Source of the DNA: Gemmatimonadota bacterium
Lineage (GTDB): Bacteria > Gemmatimonadota > Gemmatimonadetes > Palauibacterales > Palauibacteraceae
Assembly: GCA_021295785.1 (NCBI GenBank)
Contig: JAGWBR010000015.1
Coordinates: forward strand, 1-64,000
Reading direction: 5' to 3'
DNA: 64,000 bases
Below are positions 2,286 through 54,200 of this stretch, one piece after another. Within the stretch, counting starts at the first letter, position 1; every line of letters begins with the position of its first letter. The translations under genes and the position numbers were made by a program. A model generated the notes under the pieces. That model was not told the origin of the DNA, ran no database searches, and worked only from the letters and a program-made list of their open reading frames with translations.

Positions 2286-3361
2286 TTCTCGTTCTCTCGC
2301 TGTGAATCCGGCTGCGAACCGGTGCCTGTCCTTTCCTGGGCACGGGCACCCTGAAGCACGTTCGCGAGTCCGTAGTTGCCCTCGTGGCAGGCGTACTCGT
2401 AGATGCGCTGCGCACTCGCCTCAAACACCACTTCTCCGCCCCACGGCCCCGCATACGTGTCCGGGTCGTCAACGGTGAATTCATAGTTTATAGCATCCGC
2501 GCCGGGGCGCGTGAACCGTTCGGTCACTCTGAACCCTCCCGACGCCCCGCGAAACCAGCGGCTGTCGTTGAGCTGGGCCGGGTTGATGTTGGTCGTCTCC
2601 ACCACCAGCGTGTCGCCCTCCCACCGACCCCGCGAGTCACCCATCCATGGGCGCACATGGTCCGCAAGCGGGTCCCCCTCGCCGAGGCTGATGATGCGCG
2701 TGTCATGCACCATCTCGGTCATGATGGCAACATGGTCGGGGGTCTGAACGATCATGTAGTAGTTGTTGTAGAAATAATTGGGGAGCATGGGCGGGCCGGC
2801 GTTGAACCCGAACGACATCAGGCACCGCTCGCCCAGGGGCCGGCCCTCGGGATTGTCGAATTGGCCCAGTCCGCGGTGGGAGAGCGACATACTGTCTTGC
2901 CGGGCCAGGGCAGCTTCGGTAAAGGGCGGCACGCGACCGTCTTCGGGCATGCTGATGATGGAGCTCCGGTACCGGCCCTGCCATCGCATCAGCCTGTCGC
3001 CCTGCTCGAACCAGAAGATGTTGTAGCCGCCGGTGCCGCCCTGCGCCTCGGCGGCGAAGGGATCCTGATCTCCCGACTCGGGCGGCCCCCGGTCGGCATC
3101 GCTGGGGGCCAGCTGGTCCGACCACTGGCGCTGCCGAGCCTCCTCGATTTCGGCGGCGAGCTGCGGCGGGAGCACGGCCGGGGCCCCAGGAGGCCGTTCA
3201 ACCCTGGTCATGGTGGCGTTTGACCAGGTTCCCCGGAAATCGGGCGTCCCCCAGGGAGTTCTGGGGGGCTGGGAGCCTTGTCGGGCCGCTGCCGCGCCAA
3301 TCACAGCAGAGCAGACCACCATCACGAACCAGACCCACCTTGTCCGGTAAGGGGCGCTCAC
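2282..3361 (-). CDS. Exported protein of an uncharacterised family (paralogue of upstream gene)
   Basis: A 359-aa protein with a signal peptide (about residues 8-27), then a conserved opening in which a PWGTPDFRGTW segment announces the family. Related segments recur in the upstream gene (PDMSGLWQ), so the two are paralogues. Shared blocks include a WEGDTLVVETTNIN stretch, a TERFTRP strand and a VDDPDTYAGPW stretch. Proteins of this kind are common in soil and marine Gemmatimonadota and Acidobacteriota and often sit next to DUF6152 genes; no function is established. A GTG start overlaps the upstream stop as GTGA, and the downstream DUF6152 gene also overlaps, so this is a tight operon. Confidence 0.8.
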   Translation of the reverse strand: MSAPYRTRWVWFVMVVCSAVIGAAAARQGSQPPRTPWGTPDFRGTWSNATMTRVERPPGAPAVLPPQLAAEIEEARQRQWSDQLAPSDADRGPPESGDQDPFAAEAQGGTGGYNIFWFEQGDRLMRWQGRYRSSIISMPEDGRVPPFTEAALARQDSMSLSHRGLGQFDNPEGRPLGERCLMSFGFNAGPPMLPNYFYNNYYMIVQTPDHVAIMTEMVHDTRIISLGEGDPLADHVRPWMGDSRGRWEGDTLVVETTNINPAQLNDSRWFRGASGGFRVTERFTRPGADAINYEFTVDDPDTYAGPWGGEVVFEASAQRIYEYACHEGNYGLANVLQGARAQERTGTGSQPDSQRENEN

Positions 3362-4239
3362 CGGGGCAGCGGCTCCTTCCTCAGGTGCCCGTAAAGCAGT
3401 TCCTCAACAAACTCGGCACACTTGAACTGCCCCAGCCGGGCCTGCGGGTCGAGGTTCCGGTAGAGCGTGAACCGCATGGTCCACGGCTCGGTGTAGGTAT
3501 CCGGGTCGTCCAACACGGCTTCATATGAAATGTGGTCCGGGCTGGTCATGGTCCACCGTTCGGTTACGGTGAGCCGGGATCCGTGGTGGTTCCCGGCCCG
3601 GTCCAGCCACGTCATTCCGTTGAACCCGGTCACGGTGACCACGAGCGTGTCTCCCTCCCACGCGCCAACCGATTGTCCCATCCACGTATCCACCTGAGGC
3701 GGACCCGGATCGTCGAACAACACCTCGCGCACCGCCCCGGCGTATTCGTAGGCCACAAAGAACTGTGACTCGTTCTGGAGAATCTGAAAAGGCAGGTGCA
3801 TGTAGTTGGCCCTGGGCACTCCGGGCAGGTAGCACTTGACCTCCGGGTCCAGCTCCAGCCGCTGCTCACGGTTCCGGTCGCGAACGGCCAGAGCCTGGGC
3901 CGTGTACGGGATTGGCCCACCGACCACGATTCCGTAGGTGGACGGAACCGACCCGATCGCACCCAGTGCGAGCACTTCCGCCGCCGGAACCGGTGTGACC
4001 GGACCCGGGCGCATCGCCAGGGCGGCAGCGGGGCCGCTTGGTTCGATGTTCCAGTAGGCTGAGCCCATCGCCTGCCACAACCCGCTCATGTCGGGTCGCC
4101 CGTCCGCGGTCCAGGGCAGATCCGGACCCCCGCTTCCCGCACATCCCGCGAAAGCGACCTGAAGGCACATGCAGGCTGCGGCCGCGGAAACGGAGGCGTG
4201 ACCCGATCGGACGGTACGAAGTGGCGAGGAGAGGGGCAT
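3358..4239 (-). CDS. Exported protein of the same uncharacterised family
   Basis: The 293-aa first gene of the operon. Its signal or lipoprotein-type leader ends near a Cys in LQVAFAGCAGSGG, so it is probably a lipoprotein. Family markers are a GRPDMSGLW opening, WEGDTLVVTVTGFN, an LTVTERW strand and a VLDDPDTYTEPW segment, all shared with the next gene. Its function is unknown. The gene diverges from the NHL-propeller gene starting at 4305, so the 65-base gap between them must hold both promoters. Confidence 0.78.
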   Translation of the reverse strand: MPLSSPLRTVRSGHASVSAAAACMCLQVAFAGCAGSGGPDLPWTADGRPDMSGLWQAMGSAYWNIEPSGPAAALAMRPGPVTPVPAAEVLALGAIGSVPSTYGIVVGGPIPYTAQALAVRDRNREQRLELDPEVKCYLPGVPRANYMHLPFQILQNESQFFVAYEYAGAVREVLFDDPGPPQVDTWMGQSVGAWEGDTLVVTVTGFNGMTWLDRAGNHHGSRLTVTERWTMTSPDHISYEAVLDDPDTYTEPWTMRFTLYRNLDPQARLGQFKCAEFVEELLYGHLRKEPLPR

Positions 4240-4304
4240 GGGTTCAGTTTCGTTTTGCCTGACCTGGTTTGCAACGGCCGTGGTCCATAACGAAAGAGGT
4301 CAAC

Positions 4305-5531
4305 ATGCCAAACGCCCGCACTCAACCAAGAGCCACACGCTCCGGTGCCGCCCTTTCTCTGATGCCGGGGGGACCGCTACTGCTGCTTGCCGCGCTATTG
4401 GCCGCGTGCCAGGGCGCCGAACAGGACGGATACGGCGAAACTGCCGAGGTTACCCCAAGCGATATCGCGGATCCGGCGGCGGCCGGGCTCCCCAACCCCA
4501 ATCCGGTGGTCAACAAGAACTGGGCGTTGTTGCCGGACGACCGGCAGTGGGGCTCAACGGCGGGAATCGACATCGATCCGATCGACGGGCACATCTGGGC
4601 GTACGACCGGTGCGGCGCGGTGGGCCTGACGGGTGGATGCGACGCCAACGAAGTCGATCCCGTGTTCAAGTTCCACCGGGAGACGGGGGAGATTCTGGCC
4701 AGTTTCGGGGCTGGATTGTTCGTGCTTCCCCACGGCATCCACGTGGACGCGGGCGGAAACGTCTGGATCACAGATTCGATGGGGAACGAGGCCGGTACCA
4801 AGGGGCACCGGGTGATCAAGTTCAGCCCGGACGGCGAGGTGTTGCTGGTGCTGGGTCACGCCGGGCAGCCCGGGACCGAACCCGGCTACCTGAATGAACC
4901 GTGCGACGTGATCACGGCCGCCGACGGCAGCATTTTCGTTTCCGACGGTCACAGCGGGCAGAACGCCACCATTCCGGAGGGAGCCACCGGCCGCATCATC
5001 AAGTTCACGGCCGACGGGGAGTACGCGGCCGAATGGGGACAGATCGGCGACGGCCCCGGCGAGTTCCGCACCCCGCACGCGCTGGCTTTCGACTCTGAGG
5101 GGCGCTTGTTCGTCGCGGACAGGGGAAACCACCGGATCCAGATCTTCGACCAGGAAGGCGGCTATCTGGACTCATACTACCAGTTTTCCCGCGTTAGCGG
5201 CTTGTTCATCGACAGCCACGACAACCTCTACGCGATCGACTCGGAATCGAACCACGACAACCACGACGGTTGGGCGACCGGGATCCGCATCGGGCACGCG
5301 TCGGAAGACCGGGTTACGCATTTCATTCCCCCGCATCCGTCGGAACGAGGGCCGCAGGGAGTTGCCGGTGAAGGCGTGGCGGTGGACGGGGACGGGAATG
5401 TTTACGCGGCCGAGGGTCCGATCTCCCGGGCAGACGCCGGGGGCGGAATCACCAAGTACGGGACTGACCCGGCAGCGGAGGCCGGGCCAGACGGCAACTC
5501 TGAGGAGGGATCCGAACCCGAGACGGCGTGA
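4305..5531 (+). CDS. NHL-repeat beta-propeller lipoprotein
   Basis: A 408-aa secreted protein. The ATG at 4305 follows a GAAAGAGG site and gives a classical lipoprotein leader ending LLAALLAAC. A TTG 36 bases upstream is possible but less likely. The body contains repeated NHL-type strands such as VIKFSPDGEVLLVLG, IIKFTADGEYAAEWG, and DRGNHRIQIFDQEG, as in six-bladed propellers related to peptidyl-alpha-hydroxyglycine amidating lyases. Propellers of this type bind ligands or act as lyases; the exact role cannot be read from sequence. The tail is acidic (EEGSEPETA). It diverges from the DUF6152 operon. Confidence 0.85.
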   Translation: MPNARTQPRATRSGAALSLMPGGPLLLLAALLAACQGAEQDGYGETAEVTPSDIADPAAAGLPNPNPVVNKNWALLPDDRQWGSTAGIDIDPIDGHIWAYDRCGAVGLTGGCDANEVDPVFKFHRETGEILASFGAGLFVLPHGIHVDAGGNVWITDSMGNEAGTKGHRVIKFSPDGEVLLVLGHAGQPGTEPGYLNEPCDVITAADGSIFVSDGHSGQNATIPEGATGRIIKFTADGEYAAEWGQIGDGPGEFRTPHALAFDSEGRLFVADRGNHRIQIFDQEGGYLDSYYQFSRVSGLFIDSHDNLYAIDSESNHDNHDGWATGIRIGHASEDRVTHFIPPHPSERGPQGVAGEGVAVDGDGNVYAAEGPISRADAGGGITKYGTDPAAEAGPDGNSEEGSEPETA

Positions 5532-48554: not shown

Positions 48555-51500
48555 TTACCCATCCAAGCCCTCCCGCCCTGATTCGTTTTCCTTTTCCTCC
48601 ATCAACGGCCTCACGACCTCCCAGCCCTGCAGCCACAGGTTCTCGACAGCGTAGTCCATGGGGGTCTTGCCGTACCGGTCGGCGGCCTCGGGATCGGCAC
48701 CCAGATCCAGCAGGATCGGGAAGAGGGTGGGGTTGCGGAGCGCGGCCAAGTGAAGCGGGGTCCACCCTGCCCCACTACGGGCGTTCATATCTGCTCCGGC
48801 CCGCGCGAGCAGCTCCGGCACGGCAGGGTGGGGGTTGGCCGATGCGGCCCAGTGGAGCGGGGTCGCGGCAGGCTCCATACTCCGGTGCAGATCGCCGCGG
48901 GCATTTACGTCGGCGCCGGCTTCGATCAGCGTGGCGACCACCGCGGAGTCGCCGCGCCCCATGACGGCTTCGTGCAGGGGGGCCCGGATGCCGGTCTGGT
49001 CGGACAGGTTGACGTTTCCGCCCCACGGGGTGAAGTCCCTTACCGTCGCGGAGGCAATCATGCTCTCCCGATCCGGCCACACTTCGTCACTCGCACCCCA
49101 AGCGTTCACGTCCGCTCCGGCCTTCAGCAGCGCGGTCAGAATGCCAGGATTGCGGTTCGCGGCCGCCGCTTCGTGAAGCGGGGTTCTCCCCCCCGGAAGT
49201 CTGGCGTTCACGTTGGCTCCCCGGCTCACCAGTTCGGTGACGACGGCCGGATTGGTGTTCTCCGCGGCCGCCCTGTGGAGCGGCATCTTTCCGCCGGCCG
49301 CCACCGCATTGACGTCGGCCCCTGCATCGAGCAACTCTGCCGCAATGGCGGCGCTCTCATTCCGCGCCGCCTCGTGCAGCGGCGTGACGTCCCACCCGGG
49401 CTGCGGGTGGTGCGGCAGCAATCCGGTCCGCCAGGCGTCCACCTCGGCCCCGGCCGCAACCAGGACAGCGATGACGGCGGGCTCGCTGTTGTCGCGGGCG
49501 GCGTAGTGCAGGGGCGTGTATCGGTGCCGGTTGCGCGCGTTCACGTCCGCTCCGGCCGCCAGCAGCACTGTGATCACGGCCGGGTCCCTGGTCCACCCGG
49601 CCGCCACATGGAGCGGCGTTGAACCGGCCGCGTACGATTCCAGCCGACCCGAGGGGTTTCTCACCAGATCGTAGCGCGCCTCCGCATCGACTCCCACACC
49701 GGAATCGATGCAACGGACCACGGTGGCAGCCGTGGCATGGTGGAAGAACACCGGATCGGGCCATCGGCGGCAGCTCGCGGGGTCGGCGACCGTGCCCGAG
49801 TCGTCCACCTGTGTGCGATCGGCGCCGAGTTCCAGCAGGAGCGCCGCCACGGTAGGGTTTTGCTCGCGCGCGGCCCGGTGAAGCGGGGTTTCGCCGTTGT
49901 CAGCGGGCGCGTCGACGTCGGCACCCGCTCGCATCAGCAGCCGGACCATGGCGGGGTGCCCTGAACGTCCCGATGCACGGTACAGAGGCGTACCGCCGGA
50001 CTCGTCGCGCAGGTTGACGTCGCCGCCGGCGTCCAGCAGCACCGTAGCGGTGAAGTTGTTGTCGAAAAGAGTTTCCGCGGCAACGTGTAGCGGTGTACGC
50101 CCCCCCCGGTTGCGGGCGTTCACGTCGGCGCCTCCCGCCAGCAGGGCGGCTGCGGCGTCCGGCAACGGGAACGGACCCCCAACCCAATAACCGCGTGCAC
50201 CTCCCGCGACTTGGTGCAGCAAGGTCGCACCCTGTCCATCCCGTGCGTCAGTGTCCGCCCCGGCACCGATCAGCGCCGTGATGGCGGCGGGGAGGAAGTA
50301 GTGATTCGCCGTCATATCCCCCACGAGGGCATGGAGCGGCGAGTGACCCCGGCGGTCGAGGGCGCTCACGCCCACGCCGGCCTCCAGGCACCCCTCGAGG
50401 CTGACGACCGGGGCGTCCGCGAACATGGTGTGGGTCGCCCAGTCGCACACCGGAACGGCGGAGGGCGTTACTGCCGTCAGTCCAGGTTCCGGGGGCGACC
50501 CCAGCTCCAGGAGCTTGCTCACCAACCGGTCCTTTCCGTGCCTGGCGGCTGTTGCCAGCGCAGTCTCGCCGCTGTCGTTGCGGGCCACCATGTCCGCACC
50601 CGCGCCGACAAGCGCCGCGACGAGCGCCGTGTCACGGTCGGAACGCGTCGGGTAGCCGGAGCGGTTCTCAGTGTAAAACTGCGGCGGTGCGTTGTAATGA
50701 AAGGTCATGGGTGGCGCATGGCGAGGCTGTGCTCTCGCTACGGCACGGTGCAAGGGGGTGTCACCGTTGCCGGCGCGTGCGTTGATGTCGGCACCCCCCT
50801 CCAGGAGTGCGTTTACGGTGGCGAGATTCGGCCAAGCGGCCGCGCGGTGCAGTGGGGTGGCGCCCGAGGTATCCTCCGAGTTGACATCCGCGCCGCCCGC
50901 CAGCAGGGCGTGAAGTTGTGCGATGTCGTCATTGTAGGGGACTGCCAGGTGAAGCGGCGTTTCGCCGCTCGCGGCTCGTGCGTTCGCGTCCGCGCCCGCC
51001 TCCAGCAGCGCAGCGATGGCGGCCGTTCCCGAGGACGAATACCGGGCTGCCGCGTGCAACGGCGTCTCGTTCGAAGCGTTGAGTGCGTTCACGTCCGCGC
51101 CGGCTTCCAGCAGCACCTCGGCGGGGAGGCTGGAAGCCCAGTTCCTGAGAGACCAGTGCAGCGGAGTGTCGCCGTGTTCGTCAGGGGCATCGACTTCCGC
51201 TCCTGCATCGATATGCGCACGGACGACATCCAGGGCGGGACTCACTGCTGCACGATGTAGCGGAGTCGCACCAGACTCGTCGCGCGCGTCAAGGTCCGCA
51301 CCAGCTTCCAGAAGGAGCGTGACGGCCGCGGGATCGGCTACCCGGTGCAGTGGCGTCATCTTCCGGCCATCCGGCAGGTTCGGGTCGGCCCCCGCCTCCA
51401 GGAGCAGGGCCAGTGCATCCGTGCGTTGCCATTGGATCGCCAGGTCCAGTGGCGTCTGGCCGCCGGAGTTCGGCATGTTGATGTCCCAGCCGGACGCCAG

Positions 51501-54200
51501 GCATTCGCGCAAGCCATCGACGTCGACGTATTCCCGGAACAGCCGGGTGTCCCAGTTCTCGCAGTCGCGGGGCTCGGCGGCCCTGCCGCGGTTGTTGCGC
51601 GCCGTCGGGTCAGCACCTAGCTCCAACAGCCTCTCGACGACGGAGTTGTGGTTGTGCCAGGCGATGTGCAGCGGGGTGTTGCCCATGGCATCTCTTGCGT
51701 CCACATCGGCTCCGGCCGCCACCAGCGCTCCGATGACGGAGGCACGCTCGTACTCGGCTGCTTCGTGCAGCGAAGTCCTGCCCCTGAGATCCGCCGCGTG
51801 CACATTCGCGCCCGCTGCCAACAGGGCGGCAAGCCCGCGGTGGCCGTAACCCGAGTACAGGTGCAGGGGCGTTCGGCCCCAGACGTCCACCGCATTCACG
51901 TCCGCACCGGCCGCCAGGAGCGCGTTGATGACATCTTCACCACTAGCCCTGAACAGGGGCACAGTCCCGAACAGGGGCGTCGCTCCCGTCCAGTTTCGGG
52001 CGTCGACCTCCGCACCGGCCTCCAGGAGCGCGGCGATGACGCCCGCATCGGAGGCGATGTGCAACAGGCTCGTGCCGTCGTGGCTGCGAGAGTTGACGTC
52101 CGCGCCGGCCGCCAGGAGCTGCGACCTGATCGCGCGGTGCCTGAACGCCCCCCTATAGTGCAGCGGCGGCGTGCCCAGGTGGTCACGTGCATTGGCGTCG
52201 GCGCCCCTTGCAAGCAGAAAGGCCACTGCGGCCGAGTCGGCGTTCGCAGCGGCATGGTGCAGGAGTGTCGCGCCGTTGTCGTCCCGGGTGTTGATGTCGT
52301 GACCAGCAGCCAGGCACGCAGTAACCTGTTCCGGGGTGGCCTCCGCCATGAATTGGGGGTTGCGCCAATTCTCGCAGCGGGTCGCGTCAGCCAACTCGCC
52401 GCGGGCGTTTTGCGCCATGGGATCGGCACCGAGTTCCAGCAGTTGCTGCACTACCGCCCGGTTCCACCCATAATGCCCGTCGGCCCAGTGGGCATGCAGC
52501 GGGGTGTTGCCCCGCCTGTCGCGCGCGTTCACGTCCGCGCCGGCGGCTGCCAGCGCGCCGACAGCGGCGGTATCGCCAGCTTGCGCCGCCATGTGCAGGG
52601 CCGTTCTCCCGTCCGCGGAGTGGGCATTCACGTCCACACCGGCCTCGATCAGCGCTTGGATCGAGAGATGATTATCGCTCTTTTCCGACGCCCTGTGCAA
52701 AGTGGTCTCGCCCCGCCCCGTGCGCACATTCGGGTCCGCGCCAGCGGCCAGCAGGGCGGCAACCACCTCGGAAATCGTCTCGCGGTTCGAGTTGCCCCAA
52801 AATGCCAGATGCAGGGGAGTCGCGCCCTCGTTGTCGCGCGCGTTTGCGTCAGCGCCGGCCGCCAGCAGCTCCGCTATCGCGGCGGCACCAAAGGCCCGAT
52901 CCGCTGCCCGGTGCAGGGGAGTGCGGCCGCTGCGGTCACGGGCATGGACATCGGCGCCGGCCGCCAACAGTGCGCTGGCAACGGCGGAGCCGGCGTGCAG
53001 GTGCAACGGGGTATCGCCATCTCCACTTTGGGCGTTTACGTCCGCGCCCGCCGCCAGCAATGCCACGATGGCTGGCCTGGAGTCTCCGCCAAAAGACCTG
53101 AAATGCAACGGAGTCTGCCCCACGGCGTCACGCGCATTGACATCCGCTCCGGCCGCCAGCAGCGCGACTACCCCGGCGTCGCTATACGCCCGGGACGCAG
53201 CGTGGAGAGGCGTGGCTCCCCTTCGATCCCGTGCACCCAGGTCCGCTCCGGCGGCCAGCAGCGCGTCAATCACGGCCGGCTTCGGATCTGGACCGGACGC
53301 CGAATGCAGCGGCGTTTGACCCTTGTCGTCCCGTGCGCCAATATCGGCACCGGCCTTTAACAGCAGTCGTACGACGGAGCCGTCGCCGCCCCAGCGGGAC
53401 GCATGATGCAAAGGCGTTTCACCTCGGTCGTTGCGCGCCGCATTCAGTAGCACCCGGACAACTGTCGTGTCGCTGCGTGTCGCTGCGTGCATCGGCGTCC
53501 TGCCGTCCCGGTCTCCCGCGTTGACGTTGGCACCTGCCTCCACCAGCACCCCGACGATGGCCGCATCCCCCTCCCGGGCCGCCCGGTGCAGAGGAGTCCC
53601 GCTCCGGTCTGCCAAAGCATTGACGTCCGCGCCCGCCTCCAGCAACCGCACAACCATGGCGAGATCCCCGTCGTAGACCGCGTGGTGGAGCCAGGTGTTG
53701 CCATCGGGGCCCCGCGCGTTGACGCCCGGGGCGGATTCGACGCACCTGGCCACGTCGGCGGCGTCCGCCGCCCGGGCGAACGCTTCCGTGCCGGCGTTCT
53801 CGCAGTTCGCAGGATCGGCCGGCCGGCCCTCGCGGTTGCGGGCCATGCGGTCCGCCCCGAGCTCCAGCAGTGTTGCGCCCACCTCGGGATTCGAGTTGGA
53901 CCACGATGCATGCAGGGGCGTGTTTCCGGCGGCGTCCCGGGCATTGACATCCGCTCCCGCCTCGATCAGGGCGATAAGCAGGTCCGGCTTCCAAAACGAG
54001 GCCGCAACTGCGTGCAGCGGAGTCCTGCCATTCGGGCCCCGTGCGTTCGCGTCTGCGCCGGCTTCGAGACAGCTCGTTACCTGTTCGGCGGTGGCGTTCC
54101 GGAAGAAGTACGGAGAGCCCCAGCCCGCGCAGTCCACCTGGCCGGCGGCGGGCACCGCGCAGAGGAGGAAGATGGCTGCGCTCGAAATGAATCGTTGCAT
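48555..54200 (-). CDS. Giant secreted ankyrin-repeat protein
   Basis: A 1881-aa protein with a signal peptide (SSAAIFLLCAVPAAGQ) and then almost only ankyrin repeats of the form G-x-TPLH-x-A...LL-x-AGADVNARD. I see several tens of them. The solenoid is cut into six modules, each opened by a Cys/Trp/Phe cap. Caps lie near residues 24 (CAGWGSPYFFRNAT), 133 (CENAGTEAFARAAD), 610 (CENWRNPQFMAEAT), 880 (CENWDTRLFREYVD), 1253 (CDWATHTMFADAP) and 1476 (CRRWPDPVFFHHAT). Each is followed by a V..C..(A/S)G segment. Five modules end in LLELGAD or LLELGS; the last ends in LLDLGAD. Secreted ankyrin proteins often contact eukaryotic hosts; that role is inference. It is flanked by a menE remnant. Confidence 0.93.
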   Translation of the reverse strand: MQRFISSAAIFLLCAVPAAGQVDCAGWGSPYFFRNATAEQVTSCLEAGADANARGPNGRTPLHAVAASFWKPDLLIALIEAGADVNARDAAGNTPLHASWSNSNPEVGATLLELGADRMARNREGRPADPANCENAGTEAFARAADAADVARCVESAPGVNARGPDGNTWLHHAVYDGDLAMVVRLLEAGADVNALADRSGTPLHRAAREGDAAIVGVLVEAGANVNAGDRDGRTPMHAATRSDTTVVRVLLNAARNDRGETPLHHASRWGGDGSVVRLLLKAGADIGARDDKGQTPLHSASGPDPKPAVIDALLAAGADLGARDRRGATPLHAASRAYSDAGVVALLAAGADVNARDAVGQTPLHFRSFGGDSRPAIVALLAAGADVNAQSGDGDTPLHLHAGSAVASALLAAGADVHARDRSGRTPLHRAADRAFGAAAIAELLAAGADANARDNEGATPLHLAFWGNSNRETISEVVAALLAAGADPNVRTGRGETTLHRASEKSDNHLSIQALIEAGVDVNAHSADGRTALHMAAQAGDTAAVGALAAAGADVNARDRRGNTPLHAHWADGHYGWNRAVVQQLLELGADPMAQNARGELADATRCENWRNPQFMAEATPEQVTACLAAGHDINTRDDNGATLLHHAAANADSAAVAFLLARGADANARDHLGTPPLHYRGAFRHRAIRSQLLAAGADVNSRSHDGTSLLHIASDAGVIAALLEAGAEVDARNWTGATPLFGTVPLFRASGEDVINALLAAGADVNAVDVWGRTPLHLYSGYGHRGLAALLAAGANVHAADLRGRTSLHEAAEYERASVIGALVAAGADVDARDAMGNTPLHIAWHNHNSVVERLLELGADPTARNNRGRAAEPRDCENWDTRLFREYVDVDGLRECLASGWDINMPNSGGQTPLDLAIQWQRTDALALLLEAGADPNLPDGRKMTPLHRVADPAAVTLLLEAGADLDARDESGATPLHRAAVSPALDVVRAHIDAGAEVDAPDEHGDTPLHWSLRNWASSLPAEVLLEAGADVNALNASNETPLHAAARYSSSGTAAIAALLEAGADANARAASGETPLHLAVPYNDDIAQLHALLAGGADVNSEDTSGATPLHRAAAWPNLATVNALLEGGADINARAGNGDTPLHRAVARAQPRHAPPMTFHYNAPPQFYTENRSGYPTRSDRDTALVAALVGAGADMVARNDSGETALATAARHGKDRLVSKLLELGSPPEPGLTAVTPSAVPVCDWATHTMFADAPVVSLEGCLEAGVGVSALDRRGHSPLHALVGDMTANHYFLPAAITALIGAGADTDARDGQGATLLHQVAGGARGYWVGGPFPLPDAAAALLAGGADVNARNRGGRTPLHVAAETLFDNNFTATVLLDAGGDVNLRDESGGTPLYRASGRSGHPAMVRLLMRAGADVDAPADNGETPLHRAAREQNPTVAALLLELGADRTQVDDSGTVADPASCRRWPDPVFFHHATAATVVRCIDSGVGVDAEARYDLVRNPSGRLESYAAGSTPLHVAAGWTRDPAVITVLLAAGADVNARNRHRYTPLHYAARDNSEPAVIAVLVAAGAEVDAWRTGLLPHHPQPGWDVTPLHEAARNESAAIAAELLDAGADVNAVAAGGKMPLHRAAAENTNPAVVTELVSRGANVNARLPGGRTPLHEAAAANRNPGILTALLKAGADVNAWGASDEVWPDRESMIASATVRDFTPWGGNVNLSDQTGIRAPLHEAVMGRGDSAVVATLIEAGADVNARGDLHRSMEPAATPLHWAASANPHPAVPELLARAGADMNARSGAGWTPLHLAALRNPTLFPILLDLGADPEAADRYGKTPMDYAVENLWLQGWEVVRPLMEEKENESGREGLDG

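What the first reader, a model, noticed from the sequence alone, without database searches (positions are those of the whole stretch)
48555..54200. Six-module secreted ankyrin giant with recurrent Cys/Trp caps
The 1881-aa protein is not one uniform solenoid. At about residues 24, 133, 610, 880, 1253 and 1476 a non-ankyrin cap recurs (C-x2-W-type start, aromatic pair, then V-x2-C-x3-G). Each cap but the first follows a block ending in LLELGAD or LLELGS plus a degenerate linker. This implies amplification of a cap-plus-solenoid unit. The paired cysteines in each cap could form disulphides after export, which would stabilise a long extracellular fibre. I do not recognise this as a described architecture.
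Basis: partly seen in the sequence, partly recalled or inferred. Interest (0 to 1): 0.72.

Follow-up and report, generated by a model that had tools for sequence, protein, structure and literature searches.

The report
Disulphide-capped modular exported ankyrin giant
A marine (probably sponge-dwelling) bacterium exports a giant protein made of six ankyrin domains in a row, each opening with the same unusual two-cysteine cap that is very likely locked by a disulphide bond; the same capped modules occur, sometimes dozens per genome, in a few related symbiont-type lineages and look like interchangeable binding units.

Summary
In the 1881-aa exported protein, all 12 cysteines outside the signal peptide form six pairs, one per cap, 19-20 residues apart. 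In 155 caps found with a cysteine-blind profile, 153 have both cysteines in register and the other two are one-residue shifts; pairs survive 1-6-residue insertions, and surplus cysteines in complete relatives come in even numbers. Isolated caps match no Pfam ankyrin model, whereas ordinary repeats of equal length do. AlphaFold nevertheless predicts each of three modelled caps as an ankyrin-like helix pair preceded by the C-x2-W turn, so a cap is a specialised N-terminal ankyrin repeat, not a foreign domain. The genome carries a VKOR-DsbA-like oxidation pair.

The protein is therefore a string of separately capped ankyrin domains. Module 1 is 88% DNA-identical to a gene from another family, while modules 3-6 match same-genus orthologues: cap-delimited mosaicism. 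The cap is restricted: 4 of 138 Gemmatimonadota genera sampled and 4 of 396 Acidobacteriota genomes, with up to 53 caps per genome. The 'extracellular fibre' is unsupported. Most likely role: multivalent protein binding at the symbiont-host interface (inferred). Closest known kind: exported ankyrin proteins of sponge symbionts. New variant, not a new class.

The parts
48555..54200 (-). whole gene: 1881-aa exported ankyrin protein with six capped modules
54141..54200 (-). signal peptide (residues 1-20; cleavage near AAG|QVDC, predicted by eye)
   Evidence: hydrophobic core score 2.47
54069..54131 (-). cap 1, CAGWGSPYFFRNATAEQVTSC (residues 24-44)
   Evidence: AlphaFold helices
53805..54140 (-). 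module 1 (residues 21-132): cap 1 plus two repeats and a terminal half-repeat; residues 1-135 are 88.4% DNA-identical to G055, a genome of another family
53742..53804 (-). cap 2, CENAGTEAFARAADAADVARC (residues 133-153), Trp lost, Cys pair kept
52377..53804 (-). module 2 (residues 133-608): cap 2 plus about 13 repeats
52314..52376 (-). cap 3, CENWRNPQFMAEATPEQVTAC (residues 609-629)
   Evidence: AlphaFold model
51564..52376 (-). module 3 (residues 609-879): cap 3 plus about 7 repeats; 67-68% identical to same-genus orthologues
51501..51563 (-). cap 4, CENWDTRLFREYVDVDGLREC (residues 880-900)
50448..51563 (-). module 4 (residues 880-1251): cap 4 plus about 9 repeats
50388..50447 (-). cap 5, CDWATHTMFADAPVVSLEGC (residues 1252-1271), the C-x-W type with 19 spacing that recurs as the penultimate cap in relatives
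49773..50447 (-). module 5 (residues 1252-1476): cap 5 plus about 5 repeats
49710..49772 (-). cap 6, CRRWPDPVFFHHATAATVVRC (residues 1477-1497)
48558..49772 (-). module 6 (residues 1477-1881): cap 6 plus about 9 repeats; 75-77% identical to same-genus orthologues

Best explanation
The gene encodes an exported, multi-domain ankyrin protein. Each of the six modules is a separately folded ankyrin domain. It opens with a specialised N-capping repeat: a C-x2-W turn, then a short helix pair that replaces the usual TPLH helix, with the second cysteine at the first Leu position of the ordinary V-x2-L-L helix. The two cysteines most likely form one intra-cap disulphide made after Sec export by the VKOR-DsbA-like pair, pinning the N-terminal strap over the exposed end of the hydrophobic core. 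The end of one domain (LLELGAD...G..ADP) runs into the cap of the next, so the protein is a chain of capped binding domains rather than one endless solenoid. Shown: cap recurrence, cysteine pairing pattern, export signals by sequence, predicted fold, mosaic modules, restricted distribution. Inferred: the bond itself, and the function, namely multivalent binding of host or community proteins at the symbiont surface or in the periplasm, as with other ankyrin 'eukaryotic-like' proteins of sponge symbionts. Confidence about 0.85 for the capped, stapled, modular architecture and about 0.35 for the host-interaction role.
For: All 12 mature Cys are cap pairs. Cys-blind profile: 153 of 155 caps CC, the other two are one-residue register shifts. 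C-to-C distance 20 in 131 caps and 19 in 23, with 21-26 in caps that carry insertions yet keep both Cys; 16 of 22 complete proteins with 4 or more caps have no Cys outside caps, and the other six have 2 or 4. Caps follow an export-type N-terminus, SPI-like or lipobox, in nearly all N-intact ORFs. AlphaFold pLDDT 91.5 and pTM 0.82-0.83, cap as helix pair. Foldseek: the best PDB hits include many DARPin-DARPin and other DARPin fusions. VKOR next to a Thioredoxin_4 gene in the own genome, VKOR in 19 of 20 genomes searched. Module 1 versus modules 3-6 have different closest relatives. Sponge-associated Gemmatimonadota MAGs are ankyrin-enriched, 0.25% of genes versus 0.09% in seawater (PMC8163846).
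Against: No coordinates were available, so the S-S distance was not measured. Foldseek TM-scores to the fusions are modest (about 0.4-0.7, rmsd mostly 5-16), and the hits partly reflect consensus-like sequence. The host of this genome is not given, so sponge association is inferred from relatives' record names. No binding partner, expression or localisation evidence exists.
Confidence: 0.72

Rival explanations
1. A continuous extracellular fibre: caps are structural joints, cross-linked by disulphides, in a long secreted filament.
For: Export signal and great length; 1000-2000-aa relatives in tandem arrays.
Against: No surface anchor, sorting or secretion domain besides Ank in Pfam; each cap holds an even, locally closed pair, so no cysteine is left for cross-linking; some relatives are single-cap proteins with a mature part of only about 243 residues; some are lipoproteins.
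Confidence: 0.08
2. A periplasmic housekeeping or self-protection protein, for example inhibitor or chaperone-like binding of the cell's own envelope enzymes, unrelated to the host.
For: A signal-peptide-I protein in a diderm is periplasmic by default; relatives with lipobox; another exported-looking capless ankyrin protein in the same genome.
Against: Absent from most genera of the same phylum and from other genera of the same family, patchy, mosaic and multiplied to 53 caps per genome, which is unlike a housekeeping gene.
Confidence: 0.3
3. The cysteines bind a metal or cofactor rather than forming a disulphide.
For: Conserved Cys plus Trp.
Against: Only two Cys per cap, no conserved His or third ligand in 36 columns; spacing varies from 18 to 26 with both Cys kept; oxidising compartment with VKOR-DsbA.
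Confidence: 0.05
4. Caps are just degenerate ankyrin repeats with chance cysteines.
For: AlphaFold shows an ankyrin-like helix pair and the last third is ankyrin-like.
Against: No Pfam ankyrin score for caps versus clear scores for control repeats; 155/155 Cys pairs; first and penultimate cap types conserved in position across genera.
Confidence: 0.03

Closest known systems
Ankyrin 'eukaryotic-like' proteins (ARPs) of sponge symbionts (Nguyen et al. 2014; Reynolds and Thomas 2016; Robbins et al. 2021, PMC8163846; the first two cited through its references)
   Same: Ankyrin repeats, exported-looking, in lineages that include sponge-type MAGs, enriched in sponge-associated Gemmatimonadota
   Different: Those papers report repeats and abundance as far as read here; a cysteine-paired cap and multi-domain cap-delimited layout were not found described in the papers searched
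Engineered DARPins and DARPin-DARPin rigid fusions (for example 5LE2, 5LEL, 6F5E)
   Same: Separate ankyrin domains with dedicated N-caps joined in series; among the top Foldseek and sequence matches
   Different: Designed, without the C-x2-W strap or Cys pair; DARPins do not depend on disulphides
Dot/Icm type IV effectors with ankyrin repeats (AnkY, AnkH, AnkG families of NCBIfam)
   Same: Ankyrin repeat similarity
   Different: All below the curated cut-offs, and this protein carries a Sec signal peptide
Ankyphage ANKp proteins (from memory)
   Same: Secreted ankyrin proteins from the sponge microbiome
   Different: No cap relative in 2.9 million viral contigs with the pattern used
Large natural ankyrin solenoids (ankyrin-1/2, NOMPC, latrotoxins)
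   Same: Long ankyrin arrays
   Different: No recurrent Cys cap; PDB matches of the cap profile are confined to its ordinary-repeat end

Membership tests
Ankyrin repeat protein (Pfam PF00023/PF12796) | Multiple repeats above the Pfam cut-off | tested here: met
   661.9 bits, 36 stretches
Ankyrin repeat protein (Pfam PF00023/PF12796) | Caps themselves score as ankyrin repeats | tested here: not met
   No ankyrin match at E<=10 for the six caps; five controls match
Exported ankyrin protein of sponge symbionts (ARP) | Export signal | tested here: met
   Signal peptide by inspection and hydropathy, also in relatives; no dedicated predictor available
Exported ankyrin protein of sponge symbionts (ARP) | Encoded by a sponge symbiont | tested here: inconclusive
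   Relatives include RHO- and SB-named MAGs; the genome's own host is not given
Exported ankyrin protein of sponge symbionts (ARP) | Modulates uptake by phagocytic cells | not testable with these tools
   needs a binding or uptake assay
Dot/Icm ankyrin effector (NCBIfam AnkY, AnkH, AnkG and others) | Score above the curated equivalog cut-off | tested here: not met
   492.7 of 600, 358.3 of 600, 292 of 500 bits
Disulphide-stapled N-cap (defined here) | Both cap cysteines present in homologues found without using them | tested here: met
   153 of 155, the other two being register shifts
Disulphide-stapled N-cap (defined here) | The two sulphurs are in bonding distance | not testable with these tools
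   No coordinates returned with the models
Disulphide-stapled N-cap (defined here) | Oxidative folding machinery in the same genome | tested here: met
   VKOR at C8:59738-60133 beside Thioredoxin_4 at C8:60259-60750

The most novel reading that the evidence does not exclude
The capped ankyrin module is an undescribed, evolvable cassette for making multi-specific binding proteins outside the cytoplasm: a disulphide strap replaces the usual N-cap, so that domains of 2 to 13 repeats can be shuffled, multiplied (up to 53 caps per genome) and exchanged between families and even phyla of animal-associated bacteria, a natural counterpart of engineered DARPin chains that mediates recognition in symbiosis.
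Probability: 0.4. Interest if true: 0.8.

Novelty: new variant of a known kind. Interest (0 to 1): 0.6.

Why it matters
Ankyrin domains are textbook cysteine-independent folds. A lineage-specific, cysteine-locked capping repeat that starts each domain would explain how very large ankyrin proteins are kept stable and modular outside the cytoplasm. It also gives a sequence handle (a 36-column profile) for finding and testing the poorly understood ankyrin proteins of sponge symbionts domain by domain, and a natural template for stapled designed ankyrins.

Tried and rejected
Viral contigs gave no cap relative. Plasmid and phage tblastn hits were ordinary ankyrins: the two inspected hits (Salinibacter, Mycobacterium) lack the cap. 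PHROGs hits are generic repeat families. NCBIfam PA4642 (NF038106) passes its cut-off at 103 bits but with no single significant stretch; treated as repeat noise. Neighbouring genes of the window (class V aminotransferase, 6-bladed beta-propeller, AMP-binding enzyme) are not shared with the orthologous loci and gave no functional clue. Metal binding and simple degenerate-repeat readings were rejected for the reasons given under rivals. The cap-order test is clean only for first and penultimate caps; last caps match by position in 12 of 22 and second caps mostly do not.

Full report
WHAT IS THERE. The reverse-strand ORF 48555..54200 encodes 1881 residues from an ATG. It begins with a signal peptide and otherwise consists of ankyrin repeats (Pfam Ank, 36 stretches, 661.9 bits) interrupted by six caps. 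Apart from Cys14 inside the signal peptide, the protein has exactly twelve cysteines, and they are the six cap pairs: 24/44, 133/153, 609/629, 880/900, 1252/1271, 1477/1497. Shuffling the mature sequence 10,000 times never gave more than three C-x18/19-C pairs against six observed.

ARE THE CAPS ANKYRIN REPEATS? By profile, no: the six caps (and two from relatives), cut out as 35-37-mers, match no ankyrin model at E<=10, while five ordinary repeats of the same protein cut to the same length all match Ank. By predicted structure, yes in part: AlphaFold with homologue alignments gives confident models for residues 559-745 (cap 3; pLDDT 91.5, pTM 0.83) and 21-237 (caps 1 and 2; pLDDT 91.5, pTM 0.82). 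In both, the cap is a short helix pair like an ankyrin repeat; the two internal caps are preceded by a short turn that carries the first cysteine. By inspection the second cysteine occupies the first Leu of the usual V-x2-L-L helix. So the cap is a specialised N-capping repeat with an extra strap. In the PDB, the listed matches of the cap profile lie at its LEAGADVNAR end, none covering the strap and first cysteine.

CYSTEINE CONSERVATION. I rebuilt the cap profile with both cysteine columns masked and searched 2953 ORFs from the loci fetched: 155 hits spanned both columns, 153 had Cys in both, and the other two are the same pair shifted by one residue. The profile was trained on caps chosen by their cysteines, and many hits are paralogues, so this is not 155 independent events. 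Still, no cap without the pair was found. In the distinct cap set the distance is 20 residues in 131 caps, 19 in 23 and 18-26 in the rest, where insertions of up to six residues lie between the cysteines and both are kept. Of 22 complete relatives with four or more caps, 16 have no cysteine outside the caps and the other six have two or four extra. That parity is what intramolecular disulphides predict. The own genome has a VKOR gene directly beside a DsbA-like Thioredoxin_4 gene. The S-S geometry itself could not be measured because the tools return no coordinates.

DOMAIN CHAIN, NOT FIBRE. The best Foldseek hits for both models include many DARPin-DARPin and other DARPin fusions, that is, independent ankyrin domains in series; the scores are modest, so I use this only as support. 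Modules hold roughly 2, 13, 7, 9, 5 and 9 repeats (counted by eye). Pfam shows no anchor, sorting or secretion domain. Relatives include single-cap proteins whose mature part is about 243 residues and apparent lipoproteins.

EVOLUTION. Same-genus orthologues in G009 (1770 aa) and G012 (1799 aa) have five caps; the second cap of the window is missing there with both its cysteines. The 4-cap layout with spacings near 150, 410 and 190 recurs in many 1000-1250-aa proteins of another family. Across genera, first caps best match first caps and penultimate caps match penultimate caps (21 of 22 each); last caps do so in 12 of 22. The multi-cap plan is therefore old. On top of it lies exchange: residues 1-135 of the window protein, ending at cap 2, are 88.4% identical at the DNA level to G055, a genome of a different family, but only about 49% identical in protein to the same-genus orthologues; modules 3-6 are 60-77% identical to those orthologues and 38-58% to G055. 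Similarity to G055 resumes for residues 181-272, so the breakpoint picture is a mosaic rather than a single clean join. The orthologous loci share no flanking genes with the window. Chimeric assembly cannot be fully excluded, but the gene lies well inside its contig.

DISTRIBUTION. In a sample of 395 Gemmatimonadota genomes the cap occurs in 39, confined to 4 of 138 genera: the own genus and three genera of family f6. In that family 31 of 121 genomes have it, in 3 of 40 genera, with up to 53 caps in one genome and tandem gene arrays. Four of 396 Acidobacteriota genomes have it, including the record RHO1_bin_34. Named records are MAGs called RHO1/RHO3, SB0661/SB0662 and jk18, plus a Longimicrobiales chromosome, OX639991.1. 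Their sponge origin is suggested by some of the names and by the published ankyrin enrichment of sponge-associated Gemmatimonadota (0.25% versus 0.09% of genes in seawater MAGs, PMC8163846), but was not proven here. Published Palauibacterales MAGs from sponges fall in one genus while sediment and soil ones fall in others (PMC10469786), the same shape as the distribution seen here; the identity of the own genus is not told and this is inference.

HOW IT MOST LIKELY WORKS. After Sec export the VKOR-DsbA-like pair oxidises each cap; the strap is pinned over the otherwise exposed end of the ankyrin core, so each domain is sealed and stable on its own and can be added, lost or swapped. The concave faces of the modules would bind proteins, several at once. 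Whether the ligands are host proteins (favoured, because of patchy, expanded, exchanged genes in symbiont-type lineages) or the cell's own envelope proteins is open.

NOVELTY. Exported ankyrin proteins of symbionts are known; a conserved cysteine-paired capping repeat that divides giant ankyrin proteins into modules was not found in Pfam, PDB or the papers searched. I call it a new variant of a known kind.

Noticed in passing
L022 (G003:C3), L025 (G012:C57), L007: A second exported ankyrin family in the same genus has a different Cys N-cap (CWEG-x-LD...FLA-x-GC, 18 apart), a Cys pair 33-35 apart in neighbouring repeats, and a Cys-paired C-terminal cap (CDLARQ...W...LGIC): apparently independent stapling of both ends of a solenoid.
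   Followed up: partly
window 53796-54200 (gene nt 1-405): 88.4% DNA identity of signal peptide plus module 1 to a genome of another family, ending at cap 2, against about 49% protein identity to same-genus orthologues: exchange of one module between lineages.
   Followed up: yes
G000:C8:59738-60750: VKOR gene directly beside a DsbA-like Thioredoxin_4 gene in the window's genome, a likely disulphide-forming operon.
   Followed up: partly
L019 (G035:C1:2979736-2982992) and L017: Several cap genes of G035 are split across reading frames (for example 780 + 110 + 387 aa): pseudogenes, phase-variable genes or long-read assembly errors.
   Followed up: no
G328:C3:76964-99796, G189:C93 and C171, G138:C15 and C23: Tandem arrays of 1000-1250-aa capped ankyrin genes, up to 53 caps per genome.
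   Followed up: partly
L001 (G000:C18), ORF 3059..5320 (-): The other large ankyrin protein of this genome lacks the cap and has a different Cys pattern, although its N-terminus also looks exported.
   Followed up: no
L047, L048, L046 proteins with extra Cys: Some four-cap relatives carry a vicinal Cys-Cys in the last module plus one further pair.
   Followed up: no
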